64,000 nucleotides of DNA from assembly GCA_003252455.1 (NCBI GenBank), contig QKED01000011.1, positions 1-64,000 of the forward strand, written 5' to 3'. The position numbers and the translations under genes are program-made. Below the pieces are notes generated by a model that saw only the letters and a list, made by a program, of their open reading frames with translations, was not told the DNA's origin and did no database searches. This document shows, one piece after another, positions 20,595 to 41,337 of this stretch. Origin of the DNA: Gammaproteobacteria bacterium. GTDB lineage: Bacteria; Pseudomonadota; Gammaproteobacteria; Thiohalomonadales; Thiohalomonadaceae. Positions within the stretch are counted from its first letter, which is position 1. Each line of letters begins with the position of its first letter.

Positions 20595-21527
20595 ATGATC
20601 GAGTTCAACCCACACTACAGCCGCGCCATTCTCATCCGTATGTTGATACTGACCATCCTCGTCATGGTCCTGGCGCTACTCGGCTACGACTTTCTCCATC
20701 GTCTCTATCTGGAAAACCAGACCACCCTGACGGGGTATTTGGCCAATGGTGCCATCATCCTGCTCTTTCTGCTAGGGCTCGGGCGGGTCGCTGGGCTGCT
20801 CTGGCGCTATCGCCGTGAGGAGGCGGCGCTAGGCCAGTTCGCCGAGGAGATGGCGCTCGGGCGCAACAGCCCCTCGGTCGACGTGGATGAGGAGTCGCTC
20901 ATCTTCCACCGCTTTCGTCTGCTCACCAGCCTTTCGCGGCAGCGTGCCCCCATCGACCACAACGCCCTCGCCTCGGCGCTGCTCGCCAGCGAGAGTACGC
21001 GCACCAGTCTGCCGCGTTTCATCAACAATATCCTCATCCTCGGCGGTGTCTTCGGCACCATTATCTCCCTCTCCATCGCCCTCATGGGCGCCTCGAATCT
21101 GCTCGACAACGCCAGCGACACCAGCCAGATGGGGCTGGTGATCCACGGCATGTCCACCGCCCTCTCCACCACCCTCACGGCGATCGTCTGCTATGTCTTT
21201 CACGGCTACTTCTATATGAAGCTCAACGATGCACAGACCCAGCTCCTGAGCGGCATCGAACAGGTTACCGCCGTGCACCTGTTGCCGCGCATCAACGTCA
21301 CCCCCGAGAGCCTGTTGCACGAGGTGGCCGAACTGGTGCGCGCCCTGCGCGAGGTGACCGACGGCCTGCGCCAGACGCAACAGAGCCAGCGCCAGGCAGG
21401 TGAGGCGCTACACGCCGCGGTGGCCGAATTGGCCCCCGGCTTCGAACGCCTGGGGCACGGACTCGACGGGGTCGAACGCACCCTGCGCAGCGGCTTCCGC
21501 CTCTCCAGCGGGGGGGACGAGGCGTGA
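20595..21527 (+). CDS. MotA/TolQ/ExbB-like proton channel subunit
   Basis: A 310-residue inner-membrane protein. Helices lie at about 11-30, 47-67, 145-168 and 183-205. The pore helices carry the family-typical GGVFGTIISL and the Thr/Ser-rich GMSTALSTTLTAI, with a long cytoplasmic loop (70-140) between helix pairs. In this superfamily five such subunits surround two MotB/TolR-like subunits and couple ion flow to rotation or force. The gene overlaps its partner by 4 bases (GTGA). No flagellar, Tol or TonB genes are nearby, so it is a stand-alone motor of unknown purpose. Confidence 0.85.
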   Translation: MIEFNPHYSRAILIRMLILTILVMVLALLGYDFLHRLYLENQTTLTGYLANGAIILLFLLGLGRVAGLLWRYRREEAALGQFAEEMALGRNSPSVDVDEESLIFHRFRLLTSLSRQRAPIDHNALASALLASESTRTSLPRFINNILILGGVFGTIISLSIALMGASNLLDNASDTSQMGLVIHGMSTALSTTLTAIVCYVFHGYFYMKLNDAQTQLLSGIEQVTAVHLLPRINVTPESLLHEVAELVRALREVTDGLRQTQQSQRQAGEALHAAVAELAPGFERLGHGLDGVERTLRSGFRLSSGGDEA

Positions 21528-22504
21528 GCGGCTTCGTCGACCTGCGGCTGAATCACGCCGAGGGGAGCGGCGGTGGTGAGAGCTTCTGGCCCTCCTTCAC
21601 CGACATCATGATGGTGGTGATGATGATCTTCATGATCGCCAGCACCGTGCTGGTGATGCGCAACTGGGAGTTGGTGGCGGAGTTGCGCGCCACCATGCAT
21701 GCCCAGGAGGAGGCGCGCGCCGAGCAGGCGCGGGCGCTGGAGCTGGTCAACACCACCAGCCAGGAGAACGCCACCCTGGAGGAGCGGCTGGCGCAGAGCG
21801 AACACCAGCTCTCCCTCGTGCGTATGCGCCTGATGCAGGCGGACGAGGAGCGCACCCGCCTGGAGGGCGAGGGGCGTGCCCAGCGTGGCGAGCTGGAGCT
21901 GGCGCGCACCGCCCTCCAGCAGGGGCGCCTGCGCGAGGCCGAGAGCAGCCGCCGCATCGAACAGCTCAATCAGCGTGTGCATGCGCAAGACGATCGGCTC
22001 ACCCTCCTGGAGGGTGAGTTGGGCCAGGCGAGTGCCCGCCTCGGCCAGTTGGCGCGCGAACGCGACGACCTGCTCACCGCACAGGCCCAACTCGGTGAGG
22101 AGAAGGGGGTATTGGAGAGCCGCCTCAGTGAGTTGGAGGCGGCACGCAGTCAGCGTAGCGAGGAGCTGGCAGACCTGCGCGAGGAGTACAGCCAGCTCAA
22201 GGTGCAGTACGACAAGCTGGTGCGCCCGGCGCGCAGCGCGGCGGGTAAGCGCGTGGTGGAGGTGCGATACGAGCGGGTAGCGGGTGAAGAGCGCTATCGC
22301 ATCAAGGAGCCGGGTAGCGAGGGCTACCGCGAGGTGGCGCGCGCCGAATTGGAGCAGCGCCTCGACACCCTACGCGACGCTGGCGAGCCGGGCAGCCTCT
22401 ACGTGAAGATCATCATCCCCGAGCAGAGCGGCCTCTCCTACAACGAGGCGTGGCGCTTTACCAGCGAGATCCTCAACCGCTACGACTACTACTACGTGGA
22501 GTAG
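21524..22504 (+). CDS. MotB/ZorB-like motor subunit with long coiled coil
   Basis: A 326-residue partner of the preceding channel protein. A short N-terminal tail and one transmembrane helix (about 24-45) contain FWPSFTDIMM, with Asp27 as the likely ion-carrying acid, as in MotB and TolR. A coiled coil of roughly 180 residues (50-235) follows, and then a compact unfamiliar C-terminal domain (245-326) ending YDYYYVE. There is no OmpA-like peptidoglycan-binding domain. The GTG start overlaps the upstream stop. The force probably goes to an unknown periplasmic or envelope partner reached by the coiled coil. Confidence 0.82.
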   Translation: MSGFVDLRLNHAEGSGGGESFWPSFTDIMMVVMMIFMIASTVLVMRNWELVAELRATMHAQEEARAEQARALELVNTTSQENATLEERLAQSEHQLSLVRMRLMQADEERTRLEGEGRAQRGELELARTALQQGRLREAESSRRIEQLNQRVHAQDDRLTLLEGELGQASARLGQLARERDDLLTAQAQLGEEKGVLESRLSELEAARSQRSEELADLREEYSQLKVQYDKLVRPARSAAGKRVVEVRYERVAGEERYRIKEPGSEGYREVARAELEQRLDTLRDAGEPGSLYVKIIIPEQSGLSYNEAWRFTSEILNRYDYYYVE

Positions 22505-31802: not shown

Positions 31803-32411
31803 TTATACCGGAGTGCGTTGGCGTCTGCGCCGACCCGCTATGAGTGCGGTCAGGAGCAGGAGCGACCCGAGCGCGGTGCCGGGCTCCGGGGCTGAACGGC
31901 GCACCTGGATATTGTCGAGCTGCACGTTTTCGGTCGCGTAGGCGTTGCTCGGGTTGGCGAGGAACTCTACCCGTTTGAGGGTCGTGAAGCTCTCCGCCAG
32001 GGTGAACAGCTGGCTACCCGCCACGCCGTCCAGGGTCAAGGTTTGACTGACGGTCGAGTCGTCGGCATAGATCCCACGGATAATCAGGCTATAGGGCGCG
32101 GGCGAAGAGGTGGCCTCCAGCAACTCCAAACTCACCAGGTTGAAGAGCGCCTGATCCGTTGCCTCCAGGGTCATCCATGAAGTGCTGGTAAACCCTGCGC
32201 TCGGGTGCGCGGCGTAGTCAAAGGGCGCAAAGGCGTTGTTGACCCGCACGCTACCGGTATTGGTGTCGATGACGAACCCTGCCTCCGTGTAGCTGCTGTA
32301 GTCGGCCCAGGTGTTGCCGAAGCCGATACGTGCGGCCTGGGTCTGCGCGGTGAGGGTCAGGAGCGCGAGGGAGAGGAGGGTGAGGAGGAGTGGACGTAGA
32401 AGCAGTTGCAT
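31803..32411 (-). CDS. PEP-CTERM sorted secreted protein
   Basis: A 202-residue protein with a signal peptide (about 1-27) and a beta-rich body. The C terminus shows the full PEP-CTERM signal: APEPGTALG, a hydrophobic helix (LLLLTALIAG) and an Arg cluster. Such proteins are processed by an exosortase (EpsH/XrtA) and delivered to the surface or matrix, often with an exopolysaccharide locus. No exosortase is in this window. It lies 45 bases upstream of nfsB on the same strand. Confidence 0.88.
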   Translation of the reverse strand: MQLLLRPLLLTLLSLALLTLTAQTQAARIGFGNTWADYSSYTEAGFVIDTNTGSVRVNNAFAPFDYAAHPSAGFTSTSWMTLEATDQALFNLVSLELLEATSSPAPYSLIIRGIYADDSTVSQTLTLDGVAGSQLFTLAESFTTLKRVEFLANPSNAYATENVQLDNIQVRRSAPEPGTALGSLLLLTALIAGRRRRQRTPV

Positions 32412-33686: not shown

Positions 33687-35636
33687 CTAGACCTCGCCGC
33701 GCCGCGAGGCGAAGAGCAGGGCGTCGTCCTGCTTGAGGTCGTGGGCCAACACCTGAACGCGCGCCTTGGCCGCGGCGGCCTCGGCGCGACGCTGGGCCAG
33801 GCGTGCGGCGAGTGCCTGCCGACCGGCGAGCAGGGTGCCCGCGAAACCGGGAAGGTAGCGGCGGATCAGCAGGTCGTCGGCGGCGAGAAAGCAGCGAAAG
33901 CTGCCGGGGTCGCCCTGGCGGGCGCAGCGCCCGATCAGCTGGCGGTCGATGCGTCCGGCCTCGTAGGGCTCGCTCATGATCACGTGCAGCCCACCGCGCT
34001 GCGCGACGCCGGGACCGAGGCGGATGTCGGTGCCGCGCCCGGCCATATTGGTGGCGATGGTGATGCGCCCCGTCTCCCCCGCGTCGGCGATGATCGCCGC
34101 CTCCTCGCGGTGGTGACGGGCGTTGAGCAGGGCCACCTGTAGGCCGCGCCCCTGGAGCCGGGCAAAGAGGCGCTCGCTGTCGGCCACGCTGCGCGTGCCG
34201 ACCAGCACCGGCCTGCCCGCCGCGTGCAGTTGCAGGACCTCCGCCTCGATGGCGGCCCATTTGCTCTCGGCGTCGGCACAGGCGCGCACCGGCCACACCT
34301 CGCGGCGCGAGGGCCAGTGGCTGGGGATCGGCACCACCGCCAGGCGGTAGACGCGCCACAGCTCTGCGGCGGCCTCGCGCGCGGTACCGGTCATGCCACC
34401 CACGTGGCGAAAGAGGCGGAAAAAGCGCTGATAGCTGAGCCGCGCGCGCACCTCTCGGGCCGGGCTCAGCGGCACCCCCTCCTTGGCCTCCACCGCCTGA
34501 TGCATGCCGTGGCTCCAGCTGCGCCCCGGCATCATGCGCCCGGTGGACTCGTCGACGATGACCACCTTCTCCTCGTGGATCACGTAGTGCTCGTCGCGGC
34601 GAAAGAAGGCGCGCGCCGACAGCGCCTGACGCAGCAGCTCCTCGCGCCGCGCCGGGGCCTGCCAGAAGGGCGGCAGGGTGTCGGTCAACGCGGCGACGCG
34701 CTGGCGCCCGGCGCTGGTGAAGGTGATCCGGCGTAGGCGCGCGTCGGCGGTGTAGTCGCGCCCCTCGCTCAGCGCGTCACATAAGCGGGTGGCCTGGGGG
34801 ACCACCTCGCCGAGCAGCTCCGAGGCGCGCTCGGCCTGGATCTGCAGCGGCGAGACCGCCTCGTCGATGAGGATCGAGTCCGCCTCGTCGATGATCACCT
34901 GGTCGATCCCGCGCAGCACCGCTTCGCGACCCTCCCTCAGGGTGCCCAGGGTGCGCCGCACCTGCCGTCGCGCCCCGCTCTGCACCAGCCCGGCGAGGAG
35001 GCGGTCGCGCAGGAAGTCGGCGAGCAGCTCCTTGGCCGTGGTGTAGGTGATGTCCTGGTGGTGGTTGTCGCGCCGCACGGACTCCTCCTGCTCTGCCGTG
35101 ACCACCCCCACGCTGAGGCCACAGCGGGCGAAAAAGGGGCGAAAGCGTGCGGCATCGCGCTCGGCCAGGTAGTCGTTGACCGTGAGCAGGTGGGTGGGGC
35201 GACCGCTCCAGGCCAGCGGCACGGCGGCCAGCGCGGCGGTCAGGCTCTTGCCGCTGCCGGTCTCCATCTCGATCACCAGCCCCTCTGCGCTGCCTAGCGC
35301 GCCCATGATCTGCTCGACGTAGGCGCGCAGCCCCTGACTGCGGCGCGCCGCCTCGACCACCAGGGCCCAGGCCGCGTCGGTCACCTCGGCGTCGGGGCGG
35401 CGACGGCTGGTGGCGGCGTGGTCTGCCAGGCGCGCCGAGAGTTCGGCCTCGCTGAGTGCTGCGCACGCCTCGACCAGGGCGTCGATGCGCGCGGCGCGGG
35501 CGGCGAGCGGGGCGGCCCGGCGCCGACCCCGCTGCAGGCGCCCACCGAGGGCGTGGATGAACCCATCCAGCCCGGTGTGCAGGCGTTCGGGCCGGGGCAG
35601 GTCGAGGCGGTGGTAGTCGGCGTAGGGGAGTCTCAC
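33687..35636 (-). CDS. Shortened SecA-like ATPase of the giant exoprotein locus
   Basis: A 649-residue SecA paralogue; housekeeping SecA has about 900. Motor motifs are intact: Walker A METGSGKS (124-131), IIDEAD (248-253), the SecA-specific GRMMPGRSWSHGMHQAVEAKEG region (366-387, diagnostic against other helicases), MTGTA (415-419) and TNMAGRGTDI (529-538). Motif VI is altered to GRCARQGDPGS (569-579). The chain ends about 60 residues later, so the helical wing, most of the scaffold and the SecB/zinc tail are missing. The GTG at 35636 overlaps the upstream stop (GTGA); a GTG at 35681 is possible. It is the last gene of the locus. Energising export of the giant protein is inference. Confidence 0.88.
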   Translation of the reverse strand: MRLPYADYHRLDLPRPERLHTGLDGFIHALGGRLQRGRRRAAPLAARAARIDALVEACAALSEAELSARLADHAATSRRRPDAEVTDAAWALVVEAARRSQGLRAYVEQIMGALGSAEGLVIEMETGSGKSLTAALAAVPLAWSGRPTHLLTVNDYLAERDAARFRPFFARCGLSVGVVTAEQEESVRRDNHHQDITYTTAKELLADFLRDRLLAGLVQSGARRQVRRTLGTLREGREAVLRGIDQVIIDEADSILIDEAVSPLQIQAERASELLGEVVPQATRLCDALSEGRDYTADARLRRITFTSAGRQRVAALTDTLPPFWQAPARREELLRQALSARAFFRRDEHYVIHEEKVVIVDESTGRMMPGRSWSHGMHQAVEAKEGVPLSPAREVRARLSYQRFFRLFRHVGGMTGTAREAAAELWRVYRLAVVPIPSHWPSRREVWPVRACADAESKWAAIEAEVLQLHAAGRPVLVGTRSVADSERLFARLQGRGLQVALLNARHHREEAAIIADAGETGRITIATNMAGRGTDIRLGPGVAQRGGLHVIMSEPYEAGRIDRQLIGRCARQGDPGSFRCFLAADDLLIRRYLPGFAGTLLAGRQALAARLAQRRAEAAAAKARVQVLAHDLKQDDALLFASRRGEV

Positions 35637-37792
35637 AGCAGGAAGCGCCGCTGCAGGAGTTGGCGCAGGTCGCGCTGCCACTGTAGCAGCAGCGGGGCGT
35701 GGCCCGCGCTGATGCGCATCACCCCGGACTGCCCCTGCCAGAGTGGCATCCCCGGCGCGGGGAGCAGGCGCGCGCGCACGAGGAAGAAGGGCTCGCTGCT
35801 GAGGGTGCCGTCGCCGCCCTCGGCGCCGCTCTTGATCGGCTGATCACCCCCGCCCATCCAGCCCAGTGCGGCGGAGGGGAGCTGCTGATGTTGATAGGGC
35901 ACCACGGCCAGGTCGCGTACCGCGATGGTCTGCTCGGCGCGCCCGTGCAGGCGCACCTCGACACGCTGCTCGCCCGGCTCGAAGAGCCTTGATGCGGCCT
36001 CTTGGCGCACCACGGCGGACATGCGAAAGGCGGAGTCGTCCACCAGCCGTCCGAGCACCGCGCCCCGGCGCACCCAGGCGCCCGAGAGGTGCTCCTGCTG
36101 CGGGGCGATCCAGAGCCCGCCGATGGGTGCGGTGATGCGCAGCGCGGCGTGGCGCCGCTCCAGTTCGGCGAGGCGAGCCTGGGCCTCGGTCAGGCGCGAC
36201 TGGAGTGGGTCGAGGTCGGTCCAGGCGTCGCTGCGTGCCTGCTTGACGCGCAGCTCGGCCTCTTGCAGCTCGCCGCGGGCCTGTTCGATCTGGCGCAGGA
36301 GGGCCGGGTTGTCCAGCTCCACGAGCAGCGTCCCGGCCTCCACCCGCTGGCCCGAGGGGACGTGGCTGCGCGCGACGAAACCCTCCGCCTCACTCGCCAG
36401 CTCGCGATACGCCAACGCCTCCACCACCCCGTCGGCGCGAAAGTGGTCGGCCACCGGGATCAGCCCGAGTGGCAGCAGCACCAGCAGGATCAGGCCGCTG
36501 GCCGCCGCCGTGGCGCGCCAGCGGTGCCCGGCCAGGCGCGGCCCGTCGATCAGGTACTGGACCAGCTTCACCGGCGGCATGACCAGGGTGGTGAAGGCCA
36601 TCATCAGCGCCATCAACAGCCCGAGCAGCAGGTAGTGCTCGGCCACGAAGAGGGTGATCCCGGCGAAGATCAGCAGGCGGTAGGCGATGCTGAGCACCCC
36701 GTAGAGCGAGAGCCAGAGCGCCTCGCGCGCGCTCTCGACCGGCGCCGGTCGCTGTCGGCAACCGGCGGCGTAGCGCTCGAACCAGTAGGTCAGTTGGTGG
36801 CGCGAGCGCTGGTAGAGGTTGGGCAGGTCGAGCAGGTCGGAGAGGATGTAATAGCCGTCGAAGCGCAGCAGCGGGTTGGCGTTGAACAGCAGGGTCGAGA
36901 CCGAGGCGACGAACATCACGTTGTAGGCCAGGGAGTGCACCAGCCCTGGGGCGGTGTAGGCCCAGACCCACGCGGCGATGGCGGCGAGGAACAGCTCCAC
37001 CAGCATCCCCCCGGCGCCGACCAGGGCGCGGCGGTAGCGGCTGCGCAGCGCCCAGCTGGAGGTGGCGTCGACATACGGCAGCGGCACGAAGATGATGAAC
37101 ATCACCCCCAGGGTGTGCACCTCGCCGCCGAAGCGCCGACAGATGAGGCCGTGGCCCAGCTCGTGCAGCACCTTGACCAGGGCGATGGCGAGGTAGAGCC
37201 AGAGCAGGTTGCCGGGGGAGAGCACGGCGGCCCCCTGGTCGAGCAGGGCGCCGCCGCGCTCGCTCAGCGGCACCAGGGCCGAGAGCAGCACCCCGAGCCA
37301 GAGCACCAGGCCGGGCCAGCCGAAGAGCCAGCCCAGGCGCGCGCTCCAGCGTGCGAGCAGGTGGTCGGGGTCGATGAGCGGCACGCGCGGGGAGATGAGG
37401 TTGATCAGCCGCCCGCGCAGCTCGCGCCCCTCGCGGGCACGGCGCCGCTCGTAGAGGCGCGGGGCGTCGGCGGCCTGGTCGAAGTAGAGCAGGTTGGCGC
37501 GGTTGAGCTGGCTGAGCAGCTCGACCACATCCTCCTGGCCGGGGGCCTGGCCGGGGTTGCGCTCCAGCTCCGCCAGCCAGGTCTCCTCCACCGTCTGCCG
37601 TGGGGTGAGGCGCGCGACCAGCTCCCACGCCTCGGGGCGCAGGCGGTAGAAGCGGTTCTGCATCGGGTCGCGCAGCACATACCAGACCTCGCCGCGAAAG
37701 CGCTGGCGGTGGCTGCGCACGGTGGGGCGCAGCGCCACGCGCAGGTCGGCGACACGGTGCCAGGCGTCGGAGAAGAGGCGTCTGCCGCTCAT
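35633..37792 (-). CDS. PqqD - M50 metalloprotease - HlyD fusion protein
   Basis: A 719-residue multidomain membrane protein. Residues about 15-110 resemble a PqqD-type winged helix (WYVLRDPMQNRFYRLRPEAWELVARL). A site-2 protease core follows, with HELGH (210-214) and the third-ligand motif NPLLRFDG (Asp312) among several transmembrane helices. After a last helix (about 432-450) comes an HlyD-like periplasmic adaptor: lipoyl half-motifs around 470-495 and 552-585 flank a coiled-coil hairpin (500-550). This joins a leader-binding fold, an intramembrane protease and a membrane-fusion protein in one chain. It is one base from the next HlyD gene and overlaps the SecA-like gene. Confidence 0.9.
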   Translation of the reverse strand: MSGRRLFSDAWHRVADLRVALRPTVRSHRQRFRGEVWYVLRDPMQNRFYRLRPEAWELVARLTPRQTVEETWLAELERNPGQAPGQEDVVELLSQLNRANLLYFDQAADAPRLYERRRAREGRELRGRLINLISPRVPLIDPDHLLARWSARLGWLFGWPGLVLWLGVLLSALVPLSERGGALLDQGAAVLSPGNLLWLYLAIALVKVLHELGHGLICRRFGGEVHTLGVMFIIFVPLPYVDATSSWALRSRYRRALVGAGGMLVELFLAAIAAWVWAYTAPGLVHSLAYNVMFVASVSTLLFNANPLLRFDGYYILSDLLDLPNLYQRSRHQLTYWFERYAAGCRQRPAPVESAREALWLSLYGVLSIAYRLLIFAGITLFVAEHYLLLGLLMALMMAFTTLVMPPVKLVQYLIDGPRLAGHRWRATAAASGLILLVLLPLGLIPVADHFRADGVVEALAYRELASEAEGFVARSHVPSGQRVEAGTLLVELDNPALLRQIEQARGELQEAELRVKQARSDAWTDLDPLQSRLTEAQARLAELERRHAALRITAPIGGLWIAPQQEHLSGAWVRRGAVLGRLVDDSAFRMSAVVRQEAASRLFEPGEQRVEVRLHGRAEQTIAVRDLAVVPYQHQQLPSAALGWMGGGDQPIKSGAEGGDGTLSSEPFFLVRARLLPAPGMPLWQGQSGVMRISAGHAPLLLQWQRDLRQLLQRRFLL

Positions 37793-37793
37793 C

Positions 37794-39656
37794 TCACCAC
37801 CACAGCTGCATGCGCAGATAGTCGAGGGTGCGGTGGCTCAAGATCCAGCCCAACGAGCGGCGACCGACCTCGACCTTCGCCACCCCGCTCATGCCCGGTC
37901 GCCACCAGGGCTCCGGCGCCTCGCCGGGTGCCGCGCGCAGGGTGAAGGTGTTGCGCCCGTCGCGCGCCTCGGCCTGGGGCTCGAAGCGTTCGATGTGCAT
38001 GGCGAAGGTGCGCTCCGGGCGCGAGATGAAGGCGATCTCGCCGGTCTGCCCGGCGTGCACCTCGTGGGCGTCGCGCTCGTCCAGCTCCAGCTCCAGATAG
38101 AGGTCGTCGAGCGCCGCCACCTTGAGCAGCACGTCGCCGCGCCCCACCGGCGCGCCGAGCATCTTCTTCAGTTCGCCCTCCACCACCACGCCGTCGAAGG
38201 GGGCCTTGAGCTGCGCCTGACCGAGGTAGCCGCGCACCTCGTCGAGGCGCGCCTGGGACTGCGCCCGCAGTGCCTGGGCGATCTGCATGTCGGCGAGGGA
38301 TTTGGCCGCGCGCGCCTTCTCCTCCTCGCGGCTGTAGCGCGCGAGGTCGGCGAGCGCCCCCGACTCCTGTAGGCGCAGGTCGTGGGTGTCGAGGCGCAGC
38401 AGGGCGCTCCCGGTGCTGACCCGGTCGCCGAGGTCGACATCGACCTGCTCCACATAGCCGTCGAACGGCGCGGGGAGGTAGGCGAGGCGCTGTGGACGCA
38501 GGATGAACGGGGCCTCGACGCGGTACTCCAGGGTGCCGAAGGTGAGCAGCGCCAGGCTGGCGAGCACGCCGATGGCGAGCAGTTTGGCGCCGCTGTGGGC
38601 CGGACCGAGGAGCCGCTCGAACGCGACCCGCAGGCCGTCCCACCAGCGCGCGCCGAACCAGCGGTCGTGGCGCTGGAGGTCGCCAAGGCGCGGTGTCACC
38701 AGGTCCAGGGTCATGCGCAGCAGGTCGACCTCCTCCTGGGTGAAGGGCTCGCTGTCGCGCCCACAGGTGATGGCCGCCAGCGGGCCGCGCTCGCCGCCAT
38801 CGGCGGCCGAGGCGGCGCGCATCGGCAGGGTCAGCAGATGGCTCAGCCCCAGGGTCGTGACCAGGCGCTGGTGCTCGCGGGTCACCGCCTTGTCCCCGGC
38901 GGGGGGCGGGACGAGCACCTCGCGGTTCTGGTCGAGGGCCTCCTCCATCGCCCCCTCCAGGGCTTGGACCAGCTCCATGCTGGCCTCGAACTGTTCTACG
39001 TGGCTGCTCGCGCGCAGCCGTATGGTGTCGTCGTGCAGCCAGCCGAGGCTGACCTGGGCGCAGCGAAAGCGCGCCGCGATCTCGTTGCACAGGGCCATGG
39101 AGACATACGCGAAGCGCTCGCCCTCGTTGAGCGCGAGGGCGATCTCGTAGGGCTCCACCAGCTGATCGCGACGGCGCGCGTCGCTTCGCCCGGCCAGTAG
39201 CTGCGACGCCTGATAGGCCTCGGGGATGTCGGCGAGCCAGCGGAACTCGGCGCAGAAGGCCGTGGTGGCCGCGCTGCGCCGCTCCTGGATCAGCATCACC
39301 AGCGCGGGCGGCTGGTCGGCAGGGACGTTGAGTCGACCACCGACCAGCACCCCATCACCGTCGTCGTCGACCCCCACCGACCCCTCGGCGAGCAGCCGCT
39401 CGCCGAAGGCCTCGATGCGGCTACGCAGGGCCGGGGTGAGACCACCCCGGCGCCCGTCGAGCCAGGGGCCGTGGACCACCCAGCCCGACTGCGCGCGCTG
39501 CGCGAGCACCCCGGCGCGCCCCTCGAAGGCCTGCGCCAGCCCCTCGATGAGGCGTGGCCAGAACTCCACCGGGGCGCCCTCGAAGCTGCGCAGTGCGACC
39601 AAGCCAGCGACGGGGTCCGGCGCGGTGACGCGACTCTGCTGGAGGCCCTCGCTCAT
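37794..39656 (-). CDS. GAF-domain HlyD-family adaptor
   Basis: A 620-residue protein. A long cytoplasmic N-terminal part contains a GAF-like domain (about 165-320). One transmembrane helix (358-376) leads to a periplasmic HlyD/RND-type adaptor: lipoyl half-domain 390-425, short helical hairpin 430-480, second lipoyl half (LKAPFDGVVVEG, 483-494) and beta-barrel 505-600. A sensory domain on the cytoplasmic side of an export adaptor is unusual. The ATG at 39656 was preferred; an in-frame GTG at 39674 adds 6 residues. It is packed between SapC and the M50 fusion in one operon. Confidence 0.87.
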   Translation of the reverse strand: MSEGLQQSRVTAPDPVAGLVALRSFEGAPVEFWPRLIEGLAQAFEGRAGVLAQRAQSGWVVHGPWLDGRRGGLTPALRSRIEAFGERLLAEGSVGVDDDGDGVLVGGRLNVPADQPPALVMLIQERRSAATTAFCAEFRWLADIPEAYQASQLLAGRSDARRRDQLVEPYEIALALNEGERFAYVSMALCNEIAARFRCAQVSLGWLHDDTIRLRASSHVEQFEASMELVQALEGAMEEALDQNREVLVPPPAGDKAVTREHQRLVTTLGLSHLLTLPMRAASAADGGERGPLAAITCGRDSEPFTQEEVDLLRMTLDLVTPRLGDLQRHDRWFGARWWDGLRVAFERLLGPAHSGAKLLAIGVLASLALLTFGTLEYRVEAPFILRPQRLAYLPAPFDGYVEQVDVDLGDRVSTGSALLRLDTHDLRLQESGALADLARYSREEEKARAAKSLADMQIAQALRAQSQARLDEVRGYLGQAQLKAPFDGVVVEGELKKMLGAPVGRGDVLLKVAALDDLYLELELDERDAHEVHAGQTGEIAFISRPERTFAMHIERFEPQAEARDGRNTFTLRAAPGEAPEPWWRPGMSGVAKVEVGRRSLGWILSHRTLDYLRMQLWW

Positions 39657-39717
39657 GCGCCCGCGCCTTCGCACCGCTCGGTGCCGCTGGTCGCAGCGTG
39701 TGGCGCGGTCAGGCGGC

Positions 39718-40597: not shown

Positions 40598-41146
40598 TCA
40601 GGCGCTGAGCGCCCGCCGCCGACGGCGTACGAGCGGCACACTGAGGCCGAGGAGCAGGCTGCCCGCGAGCGCGGAGGGCTCCGGGGCGACCCTGGTGAAG
40701 GTCGCGGAGCCGCCCAGGGCATAGTCGCCATAGGCATAGACCACCAGTGGGTCGCTGATCGGGCTCTCGTAGACGTAGTGGGCGTCGTTGCCGCTATCGA
40801 GGGTGTCGACAAACCAGCGGCTGGCGATATCGAAGGTCGCCTGCGCACCAATGACCGTATTGTCGATGGAGATGGCGATGTCGAGGCTGCCGTCGTCCAC
40901 CACGCCAGCGGCGACCACGACGTCGCTCCAGGCATAGACACCGTTGTCATAGCCGTCCACCTGCCAGAGCGTCAGGTCCGTCTCGCTGCTGGGGTCGACG
41001 CTGTTGTCGTAGGTGATATGAAACTTCAGCAGATCCCCCTCTATGTTGCTGTAGGTGCGCGAGGTGGTCATGGTGGCCGCCGCGACCGGTTGGGCGAAGA
41101 GCACGAGGCAGAGCGCTACGAGGGCCGCAAAGGGTGGTCTGTACAT
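40598..41146 (-). CDS. PEP-CTERM sorted protein beside the giant gene
   Basis: A 182-residue protein with a signal peptide (about 1-24, ending VAA) and a beta-rich body. It ends with the PEP-CTERM signal (APEPSALAG, hydrophobic helix, RRRRR). The ATG at 41146 gives the signal peptide directly; a longer in-frame start adds a Pro/Arg-rich leader and is rejected. The ribosome-binding site is weak. It is 191 bp downstream of the giant gene and 121 bp upstream of sapC, so it may be co-transcribed with either or neither. Confidence 0.85.
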   Translation of the reverse strand: MYRPPFAALVALCLVLFAQPVAAATMTTSRTYSNIEGDLLKFHITYDNSVDPSSETDLTLWQVDGYDNGVYAWSDVVVAAGVVDDGSLDIAISIDNTVIGAQATFDIASRWFVDTLDSGNDAHYVYESPISDPLVVYAYGDYALGGSATFTRVAPEPSALAGSLLLGLSVPLVRRRRRALSA

Positions 41147-41170
41147 AGTGGTTCTCGAATCGGTTGGATG

Positions 41171-41199
41171 GGGGGCGGGGAGGGGGACACCCCGCCCCC
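41171..41199 (-). terminator. GC-rich hairpin after the giant exoprotein gene
   Basis: GGGGGCGGGG (41171-41180) pairs perfectly with CCCCGCCCCC (41190-41199) across a 9-base loop. It lies about 140 bases after the giant stop and 25 bases before the PEP-CTERM start. There is no T-tract, so it may be an attenuator or an mRNA-stability element, not a full terminator. Confidence 0.45.
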
Positions 41200-41337
41200 G
41201 CCTCGGCAAGGTCGGTGCATCGCCCCGTAGGGTAAGGCACGCATATGAAGATATGGCGACCCCTCGGCCTGCCCGTGCAGCTCTCTACCTCGCCGCGTCA
41301 CGGCGGCTCGCTATGTCGCGCTCTGCGCCGCCCCGCC

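What the first reader, a model, noticed from the sequence alone, without database searches (positions are those of the whole stretch)
20595..22504. Stand-alone MotA/MotB-like ion motor with a ~180-residue coiled coil and no OmpA domain
The two genes overlap by 4 bases and form a likely 5:2 ion-driven motor. MotB-type Asp27 is present, but the peptidoglycan anchor is replaced by a long coiled coil and an unfamiliar C-terminal domain. No flagellar, Tol, TonB, gliding or Zorya effector genes are next to it, so its load is unknown.
Basis: partly seen in the sequence, partly recalled or inferred. Interest (0 to 1): 0.62.

Follow-up and report, generated by a model that had tools for sequence, protein, structure and literature searches.

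The report
Trans-envelope ExbB/TolR-type motor, unknown load
Two overlapping genes encode an uncharacterised ion-driven membrane motor whose axle subunit appears to carry its own ~27 nm coiled-coil strut, long enough to cross the space between the two membranes and tipped by a TolR-like domain; it is conserved in many environmental bacteria without any constant third partner, so what it drives is unknown.

Summary
The gene pair is real. A (20595-21527, 310 aa) and B (21524-22504, 326 aa) overlap by 4 bases and form a conserved two-gene module: 81 of 81 compared loci carry A followed by a B with the same N- and C-terminal parts. B's Asp27 and A's two channel threonines are invariant. The coiled coil is real: at least 147 residues (21.8 nm) in all 95 measured members, one proline in 16,951 residues, and a sharp 3.5-residue period.

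A is closer in fold to ExbB/TolQ (Z 14.0/13.5) than to ZorA (11.5) or MotA (10.9). The 'unfamiliar' end of B has the predicted fold of the TolR periplasmic domain (Z 8.1, 73 of 74 residues; next unrelated match 5.5), although profile-profile sequence comparison does not confirm homology. So this is an ExbB/TolQ + ExbD/TolR-type motor whose axle subunit has a periplasm-long strut inserted, not a MotB that lost its OmpA domain.

Stand-alone is supported: neighbours differ between clades, no family matched more than 4 of 102 scanned neighbours, and none was a Zorya protein. The genome lacks FlhA. I propose a trans-envelope force transducer with an unknown load: an uncharacterised variant of a known kind.

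The parts
20595..21527 (+). Gene A: ExbB/TolQ/MotA-like subunit, 310 aa, four predicted membrane helices plus a cytoplasmic tail
   Evidence: Pfam MotA_ExbB matches 57 of 61 members
20616..20681 (+). A residues 8-29: extra N-terminal membrane helix, as in MotA; the ExbB/TolQ alignments start at about residue 30
   Evidence: AF2 secondary structure; VIA ranges
21006..21209 (+). A TM3 and TM4 (about residues 138-205), with T155 (21057-21059) and T193 (21171-21173), the putative channel threonines equivalent by hand alignment to TolQ GLFGT and EALIAT
   Evidence: T155 and T193 invariant 81/81 (listed there as T158/T196 because of a 3-residue offset); own TolQ sequence
21303..21524 (+). A C-terminal cytoplasmic helix (about residue 237-300) ending in the invariant GFRL motif (residues 300-303, 21492-21503)
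   Evidence: L297, G300, F301, R302, L303 invariant 81/81; helix 237-300 in the model
21524..22504 (+). Gene B: single-TM axle subunit, 326 aa, GTG start
21587..21658 (+). B membrane helix, about residue 22-45 (WPSFTDIMMVVMMIFMIAS), with Asp27 at 21602-21604
   Evidence: D27 81/81; ZorB1 profile 1.1e-6 over residues 18-71; pairwise hhalign to ExbD/TolR TM E 3.4e-4
21659..22207 (+). B coiled coil, about residue 46-228 (about 27 nm as a continuous helix)
   Evidence: 182 residues here; family minimum 147, median 175; period 3.5; 94 of 95 members without proline
22208..22501 (+). B C-terminal domain, about residue 229-326, with predicted TolR periplasmic-domain fold
   Evidence: AF2 pLDDT 87.7; TolR 2jwk Z 8.1, 2.3 A, 73 of 74 residues; TolR 5by4 Z 7.4

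Best explanation
A and B form an ion-driven inner-membrane motor of the ExbB/TolQ + ExbD/TolR kind. A would be the pentameric ring and B the central dimeric axle, with Asp27 moving between A's threonine rings. What sets it apart is that B joins two jobs that Ton and Tol split between proteins: the ion-carrying axle (ExbD/TolR) and the periplasm-spanning force rod (TonB/TolA). Its coiled coil of at least 22 nm carries a TolR-like domain across the periplasm to the peptidoglycan/outer-membrane side. The likeliest working mode is that the tip engages the cell wall or an outer-membrane component, and ion flow makes A and B turn relative to each other, passing force or a signal between that contact and a cytosolic protein that binds the invariant GFRL motif at the end of A's tail. 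SHOWN here by computation: the gene pair and its conservation, the invariant motor residues, the coiled coil, and the predicted folds. INFERRED: 5:2 assembly, ion conduction, rotation, dimeric coil, tip location, and a cytosolic partner. The load is not identified.
For: The A model's best matches are all ExbB, TolQ, ZorA or MotA. Asp27, T155 and T193 are invariant in 81 of 81. B's C-terminal domain gives the two TolR structures as the top two of 999 chains, covering 73 of 74 residues, a fold expected from the order of conserved segments before the search was run. Pfam ExbD matches 5 of 61 members at up to 1.7e-3. The strut is never shorter than 147 residues (21.8 nm) while varying up to 312, as expected if it must at least span the periplasm. 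Strong conservation sits at B's tip (Y229, P235, R237, L292, Y293, P299, A309, D321, Y322, Y323) and at A's extreme C-terminus (GFRL, 81/81), with a variable stretch between. The genome has TolQ plus ExbB paralogues and lacks FlhA, so this is neither its Tol motor nor a flagellar stator.
Against: hhalign of B's C-terminal domain against an ExbD/TolR profile is not significant (E about 0.07-0.09; the global-mode score lies within the column-shuffled null), so homology to TolR rests on the predicted fold. Foldseek itself did not rank TolR among its top 50. No A+B complex could be modelled. Strut length varies far above the periplasm's width (up to 46 nm as straight helix), which a rigid spanning rod does not explain. 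No phenotype or partner is known. In one subclade A persists with B truncated or absent.
Confidence: 0.55

Rival explanations
1. A Zorya-like anti-phage sensor: B senses cell-envelope damage by phage and A's tail signals to a cytosolic effector encoded elsewhere.
For: B's membrane segment scores best with ZorB (1.1e-6); 28 of 61 A members score weakly with a ZorA2 profile; presence is patchy within genera (24 of 74 genomes in one family) and positions change between congeners.
Against: A's tail is about 75 residues, whereas the long ZorA tail is required for Zorya defence (PMC11890865). B lacks the OmpA-like domain whose peptidoglycan binding Zorya needs. Of 102 neighbours of 34 representative loci plus the window, none matched a Zorya model at 1e-10; only single hits to ThsA, PDC-S03 and mad2. 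No match to the window's A in 72,556 plasmid or 50,697 phage records. Neighbourhoods are housekeeping and shared across related species.
Confidence: 0.15
2. An envelope-lipid or outer-membrane maintenance motor working with an MlaC-type lipid carrier.
For: A MlaC-family gene (PF05494, 1.3e-30 and 2e-23) lies downstream of A-B in 16 loci and directly upstream of A in three others (L112, L121, L124), so linkage outlived a rearrangement.
Against: All these loci belong to one clade of 25 sequences with modest support (80). In the other clades, including the window, no MlaC was seen nearby. The recurring genes in those clades are unrelated (LpxH, DUF455, glycerate kinase, ThiC).
Confidence: 0.12
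3. A passive or ion-leak tether: a periplasm-spanning dimer that links inner membrane and cell wall, with A serving only as an anchor.
For: A long coiled coil with a possible peptidoglycan-binding tip would make a good tether; no third partner is conserved.
Against: Complete conservation of Asp27 and the two threonines (81/81) is not expected for a mere tether.
Confidence: 0.1
4. A flagellar-type stator or a remnant of one.
For: A has an extra N-terminal helix as in MotA.
Against: No FlhA in a 99.7% complete genome, no OmpA domain in B, and better structural agreement of A with ExbB/TolQ than with MotA.
Confidence: 0.02

Closest known systems
TolQ-TolR / ExbB-ExbD motors
   Same: A fold (Z 13.5-14.0), Asp-bearing TM of B, predicted fold of B's periplasmic domain, adjacent gene order A then B
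   Different: B has a 147-312 residue coiled coil between TM and domain, against a linker of somewhat over 25 residues in TolR (PMC4646322); A has an extra N-terminal TM helix and a GFRL-ended tail; no TonB or TolA gene seen next to it
GldL-GldM (type 9 secretion and gliding)
   Same: Axle subunit itself extends far into the periplasm (GldM about 18 nm shaft, PMC9389320)
   Different: GldM's shaft is four folded domains, here a coiled coil with one tip domain; other phylum; no gld genes recognised nearby
TolQ-like motor with vWA proteins bearing a TolR-like transpore helix (PMC12204202)
   Same: Axle helix carrying its own periplasmic force transducer, no separate TonB/TolA, function unknown
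   Different: There a vWA fold, mostly in unlike pairs; here one B with coiled coil and TolR-like tip
Zorya ZorA-ZorB
   Same: Motor core; ZorB is the best-scoring library profile for B's TM segment
   Different: Short A tail, no OmpA-like domain, no ZorC/D/E hit nearby
MotA-MotB flagellar stator
   Same: Motor core, four TM helices in A
   Different: No OmpA domain, no flagellum, A nearer ExbB/TolQ

Membership tests
ExbBD/TolQR-type (generic ion transporter) motor | A subunit with ExbB/TolQ/MotA fold | tested here: met
   Top 24 VIA entries are ExbB, TolQ, ZorA or MotA, Z 14.0-10.9; PF01618 in 57 of 61 members, though the window copy is below the Pfam cut-off (19.4 against 22.9 bits)
ExbBD/TolQR-type (generic ion transporter) motor | B TM helix with essential Asp; ring threonines in A | tested here: met
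   D27, T155, T193 81/81; function of the residues not tested
ExbBD/TolQR-type (generic ion transporter) motor | TolR/ExbD periplasmic domain in B | tested here: inconclusive
   Fold matches TolR; sequence profile comparison not significant; PF02472 in 5 of 61 at up to 1.7e-3
ExbBD/TolQR-type (generic ion transporter) motor | Short TM-to-domain linker | tested here: not met
   147-312 residue coiled coil in 95 members
Tol-Pal or Ton system | TolA or TonB partner gene in the locus | tested here: inconclusive
   No recurrent partner in neighbour maps; Pfam scan of neighbours shows no Tol/Ton family among the 25 of 99 families displayed
Zorya | OmpA-like peptidoglycan-binding domain in ZorB | tested here: not met
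   No OmpA match in B at E<=1; domain modelled with a TolR-like fold
Zorya | Long cytoplasmic ZorA tail | tested here: not met
   A ends about 75 residues after TM4's helix; family about 305-320 aa, longest among the compared homologues about 370
Zorya | Adjacent ZorC/D, ZorE or ZorF/G | tested here: not met
   0 of 102 neighbours match a Zorya model at 1e-10
Flagellar MotAB stator | OmpA domain in B and a flagellum in the organism | tested here: not met
GldLM | GldM periplasmic shaft of four folded domains | tested here: not met
   B is a coiled coil plus one alpha/beta domain; the GldM description is from PMC9389320
TPH-vWA force transducers | vWA domain in the axle subunit | tested here: not met
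   No vWA match to the window's B in Pfam; TolR-like model instead
5:2 rotary motors | Five A and two B subunits, relative rotation | not testable with these tools
   No multimer prediction available; inferred by homology

The most novel reading that the evidence does not exclude
A distinct class of trans-envelope motor in which the ion-carrying axle is itself the periplasm-spanning drive rod: rotation in the inner membrane is delivered directly, over 22 nm or more, to a TolR-like tip at the cell wall or outer membrane, with no TonB/TolA/Pal-type partner, and coupled to the cytosol by A's GFRL tail.
Probability: 0.3. Interest if true: 0.8.

Novelty: new variant of a known kind. Interest (0 to 1): 0.55.

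Why it matters
Known 5:2 motors are few (Mot, Tol, Ton, Gld, Agl, Zor), and how force gets from the inner membrane to the outer envelope is debated, because in Ton and Tol the rod is a separate protein attached at the motor's side. Here axle and rod would be one polypeptide with a measurable, nearly proline-free coil, so rotation or pulling could be tested directly by changing coil length or phase. The pair is common (55 of 369 sampled genomes of the class; 325 confirmed relatives in one genome collection) yet no library used here names it, and it occurs in sulfur-oxidising symbionts and sediment bacteria.

Tried and rejected
1) Flagellar stator: no FlhA in the genome. 2) Zorya: tail length, OmpA domain and effectors absent. 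3) Alphaproteobacterial 'peptidoglycan-binding' PRK09039 family: matches B only over TM and coil at up to 3e-4, and the remote A relatives in family f216 have a different partner. 4) Constant third partner: neighbour maps show different housekeeping genes per clade; MlaC linkage is limited to one clade. 5) Sequence proof of TolR homology: hhalign local and global, with a shuffled-column control, not significant. 6) PDB sequence searches with single sequences and profiles gave no informative hit, mainly coiled coils. 7) Foldseek alone on B's C-domain listed no TolR in its top 50; only the VIA re-alignment did. 8) Mobile or viral carriage: no hit to A in viral contigs, plasmids or phages. 9) Literature searches found no description of this architecture, but the library holds open-licence papers only.

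Full report
OBSERVATION. The two genes are present as described. A runs from ATG 20595 to TGA 21527 and B from GTG 21524 to TAG 22504, with a 4-base GTGA overlap. The pair is a real conserved unit. In the relatives sampled first, 9 of 19 other genomes of the same family carry A; in an even sample of the class, 55 of 369 genomes and 40 of 272 genera; a further family of the same phylum but another class has it in 24 of 74 genomes. A scan of a public genome collection confirmed 325 relatives and returned 80 named loci, mostly Gammaproteobacteria such as Sedimenticola, Chromatiales, Thiotrichaceae, Ca. Thiodiazotropha and tubeworm or clam symbionts. In all 81 loci (80 plus the window) A is accompanied by a B with both the N-terminal and the C-terminal part in one ORF.

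ANATOMY OF A. AF2 on a 61-sequence alignment gave mean pLDDT 84: helices 8-29, 45-87, 138-171 and 177-233 contain the membrane segments, two short helices lie in the cytoplasmic loop, and a last helix 237-300 forms a tail. Foldseek's 50 listed matches are all ExbB, MotA, ZorA or TolQ with probability mostly near 1 (E 2.6e-3 and up). Re-alignment ranks ExbB (Z 14.0, 207 residues) and TolQ (13.5) above ZorA (11.5) and MotA (10.9). For a helical protein such Z values alone are not decisive, but the top 24 entries are all this superfamily. The ExbB/TolQ alignments begin at model residue 30 or so, so helix 8-29 is additional, as in MotA. Pfam MotA_ExbB recognises 57 of 61 members, the window copy only below the cut-off. 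T155 and T193 and the C-terminal motif L297-x-x-G-F-R-L are invariant in 81 of 81.

ANATOMY OF B. A short cytosolic GFVDLR segment is followed by WPSFTDIM...IF, a TM helix with invariant Asp27, most like ZorB in profile libraries and also alignable to ExbD/TolR. Then comes a coiled coil of 182 residues. Over 95 members of two classes the coil measures 147 to 312 residues (21.8 to 46.3 nm at 0.1485 nm per residue), holds one proline in 16,951 residues, and has a power peak at period 3.5 about five times background. The last ~98 residues are as conserved as the TM helix (Y229, L232, P235, R237, L292, Y293, P299, L304, A309, D321, Y322, Y323). From the order of conserved segments I had noted the ExbD/TolR periplasmic fold as the expectation. 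AF2 (pLDDT 87.7) and VIA re-alignment then gave H. influenzae TolR (Z 8.1, 2.3 A, 73 of 74 residues) and E. coli TolR (Z 7.4) as the first two of 999 chains, with the next at 5.5. Caveats: Foldseek alone did not show TolR in its top 50; profile-profile sequence comparison is not significant; Pfam ExbD hits 5 of 61 members weakly. I therefore call the domain TolR-like by predicted fold, not proven homologous.

SURROUNDINGS. Next to the pair in the window are DUF6524 and Sel1-repeat genes upstream on the other strand, and a response-regulator/GGDEF gene downstream on the other strand, so A-B is probably a two-gene transcription unit here. In relatives the neighbourhood is clade-specific: 2OG-oxygenase / A-B / small secreted protein / MlaC in one clade; LpxH, DUF455, glycerate kinase / A-B / Slp or CobW in another; ThiC / A-B in a third; various in the other class. 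Of 102 neighbour proteins, no Pfam family matched more than 4, and PADLOC at 1e-10 found single hits to ThsA, PDC-S03 and mad2 but no Zorya protein (Pfam shows only the top 25 of 99 families). The genome's other MotA_ExbB genes are TolQ plus ExbB paralogues and it has no FlhA. Related species often share gene order, which suggests vertical inheritance, whereas in one genus of the other class congeners carry the pair at different loci (dnaB, proA-nadD and others), so gain, loss or movement also occurs.

MECHANISM. Shown: conservation of the ion-motor residues, the rod, and the tip. Inferred from known families: A5B2 assembly, ion flow past Asp27 and rotation (PMC9389320, PMC12505986). TolR's periplasmic domain has a cryptic peptidoglycan-binding activity that its strand-swapped dimer masks, and must reach a layer about 9 nm away through a linker of over 25 residues (PMC4646322); here the rod is at least twice that distance, enough to place the tip beyond the wall, at the outer membrane. 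The lower bound of rod length near the periplasm's width (my general knowledge, roughly 20-25 nm) fits a spanning role; the large upper range does not fit a stiff rod of fixed length. The invariant GFRL motif at the end of a variable cytosolic helix looks like a docking motif for a cytosolic partner. I favour a trans-envelope force or signal transducer, direction unresolved.

COMPARISON. It works like an ExbBD/TolQR motor with the rod built in. It is not a flagellar stator or Zorya by tested features. The nearest published ideas are the vWA protein with a TolR-like transpore helix that is thought to turn inside a TolQ-like pentamer (PMC12204202), and GldM as an axle-shaft (PMC9389320); neither has this architecture. 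PMC12505986 groups non-flagellar relatives as heterogeneous generic ion transporters, into which this pair would fall. I found no description of the pair in the open-licence literature held here.

VERDICT. The pair is a widespread, unnamed variant of a known motor kind; the load is unknown and testable.

Noticed in passing
L168 7210-7944, L169 216-959 (-), L167 6396-7367, L174 4579-5550: In one subclade of the other class, at the proA-nadD site, A stays intact while B is cut to TM plus coil without the TolR-like domain (L168, L169) or is missing altogether (L167, L174). Either decay or A working with another partner.
   Followed up: partly
L087 10001-12312: Both A's tail and B's coil are lengthened by internal repeats in the same organism (about three repeats in A, about five in B).
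   Followed up: no
L066, L087, L112, L121, L124 and about 14 related loci: A stand-alone MlaC-family gene lies beside the pair, downstream in most and directly upstream in three, within one clade.
   Followed up: partly
window 41338-63951 (-): A very large continuous ORF (7537 aa, reaching almost to the window's end) with repetitive, cadherin-like and other surface-protein-like sequence; looks like a giant exported adhesin-type protein.
   Followed up: no
window 33687-39674 (-): A SecA-like ORF, an ORF resembling a multi-pass M50-type protein with a membrane-fusion-like end, and a HlyD-like ORF in a row, next to the giant ORF; possibly its export machinery. Read by eye, not searched.
   Followed up: no
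window 31803-32411 (-) and 40598-41209 (-): Two small secreted proteins end in PEP-CTERM-like sorting tails (PEPGTALGSLLLLTALIAGRRRR; PEPSALAGSLLLGLSVPLVRRRRR).
   Followed up: no
L119, L122: Two loci are titled Desulfuromonadales MAGs yet encode A at about 47% identity to the window; either a wider distribution or mislabelled bins.
   Followed up: no
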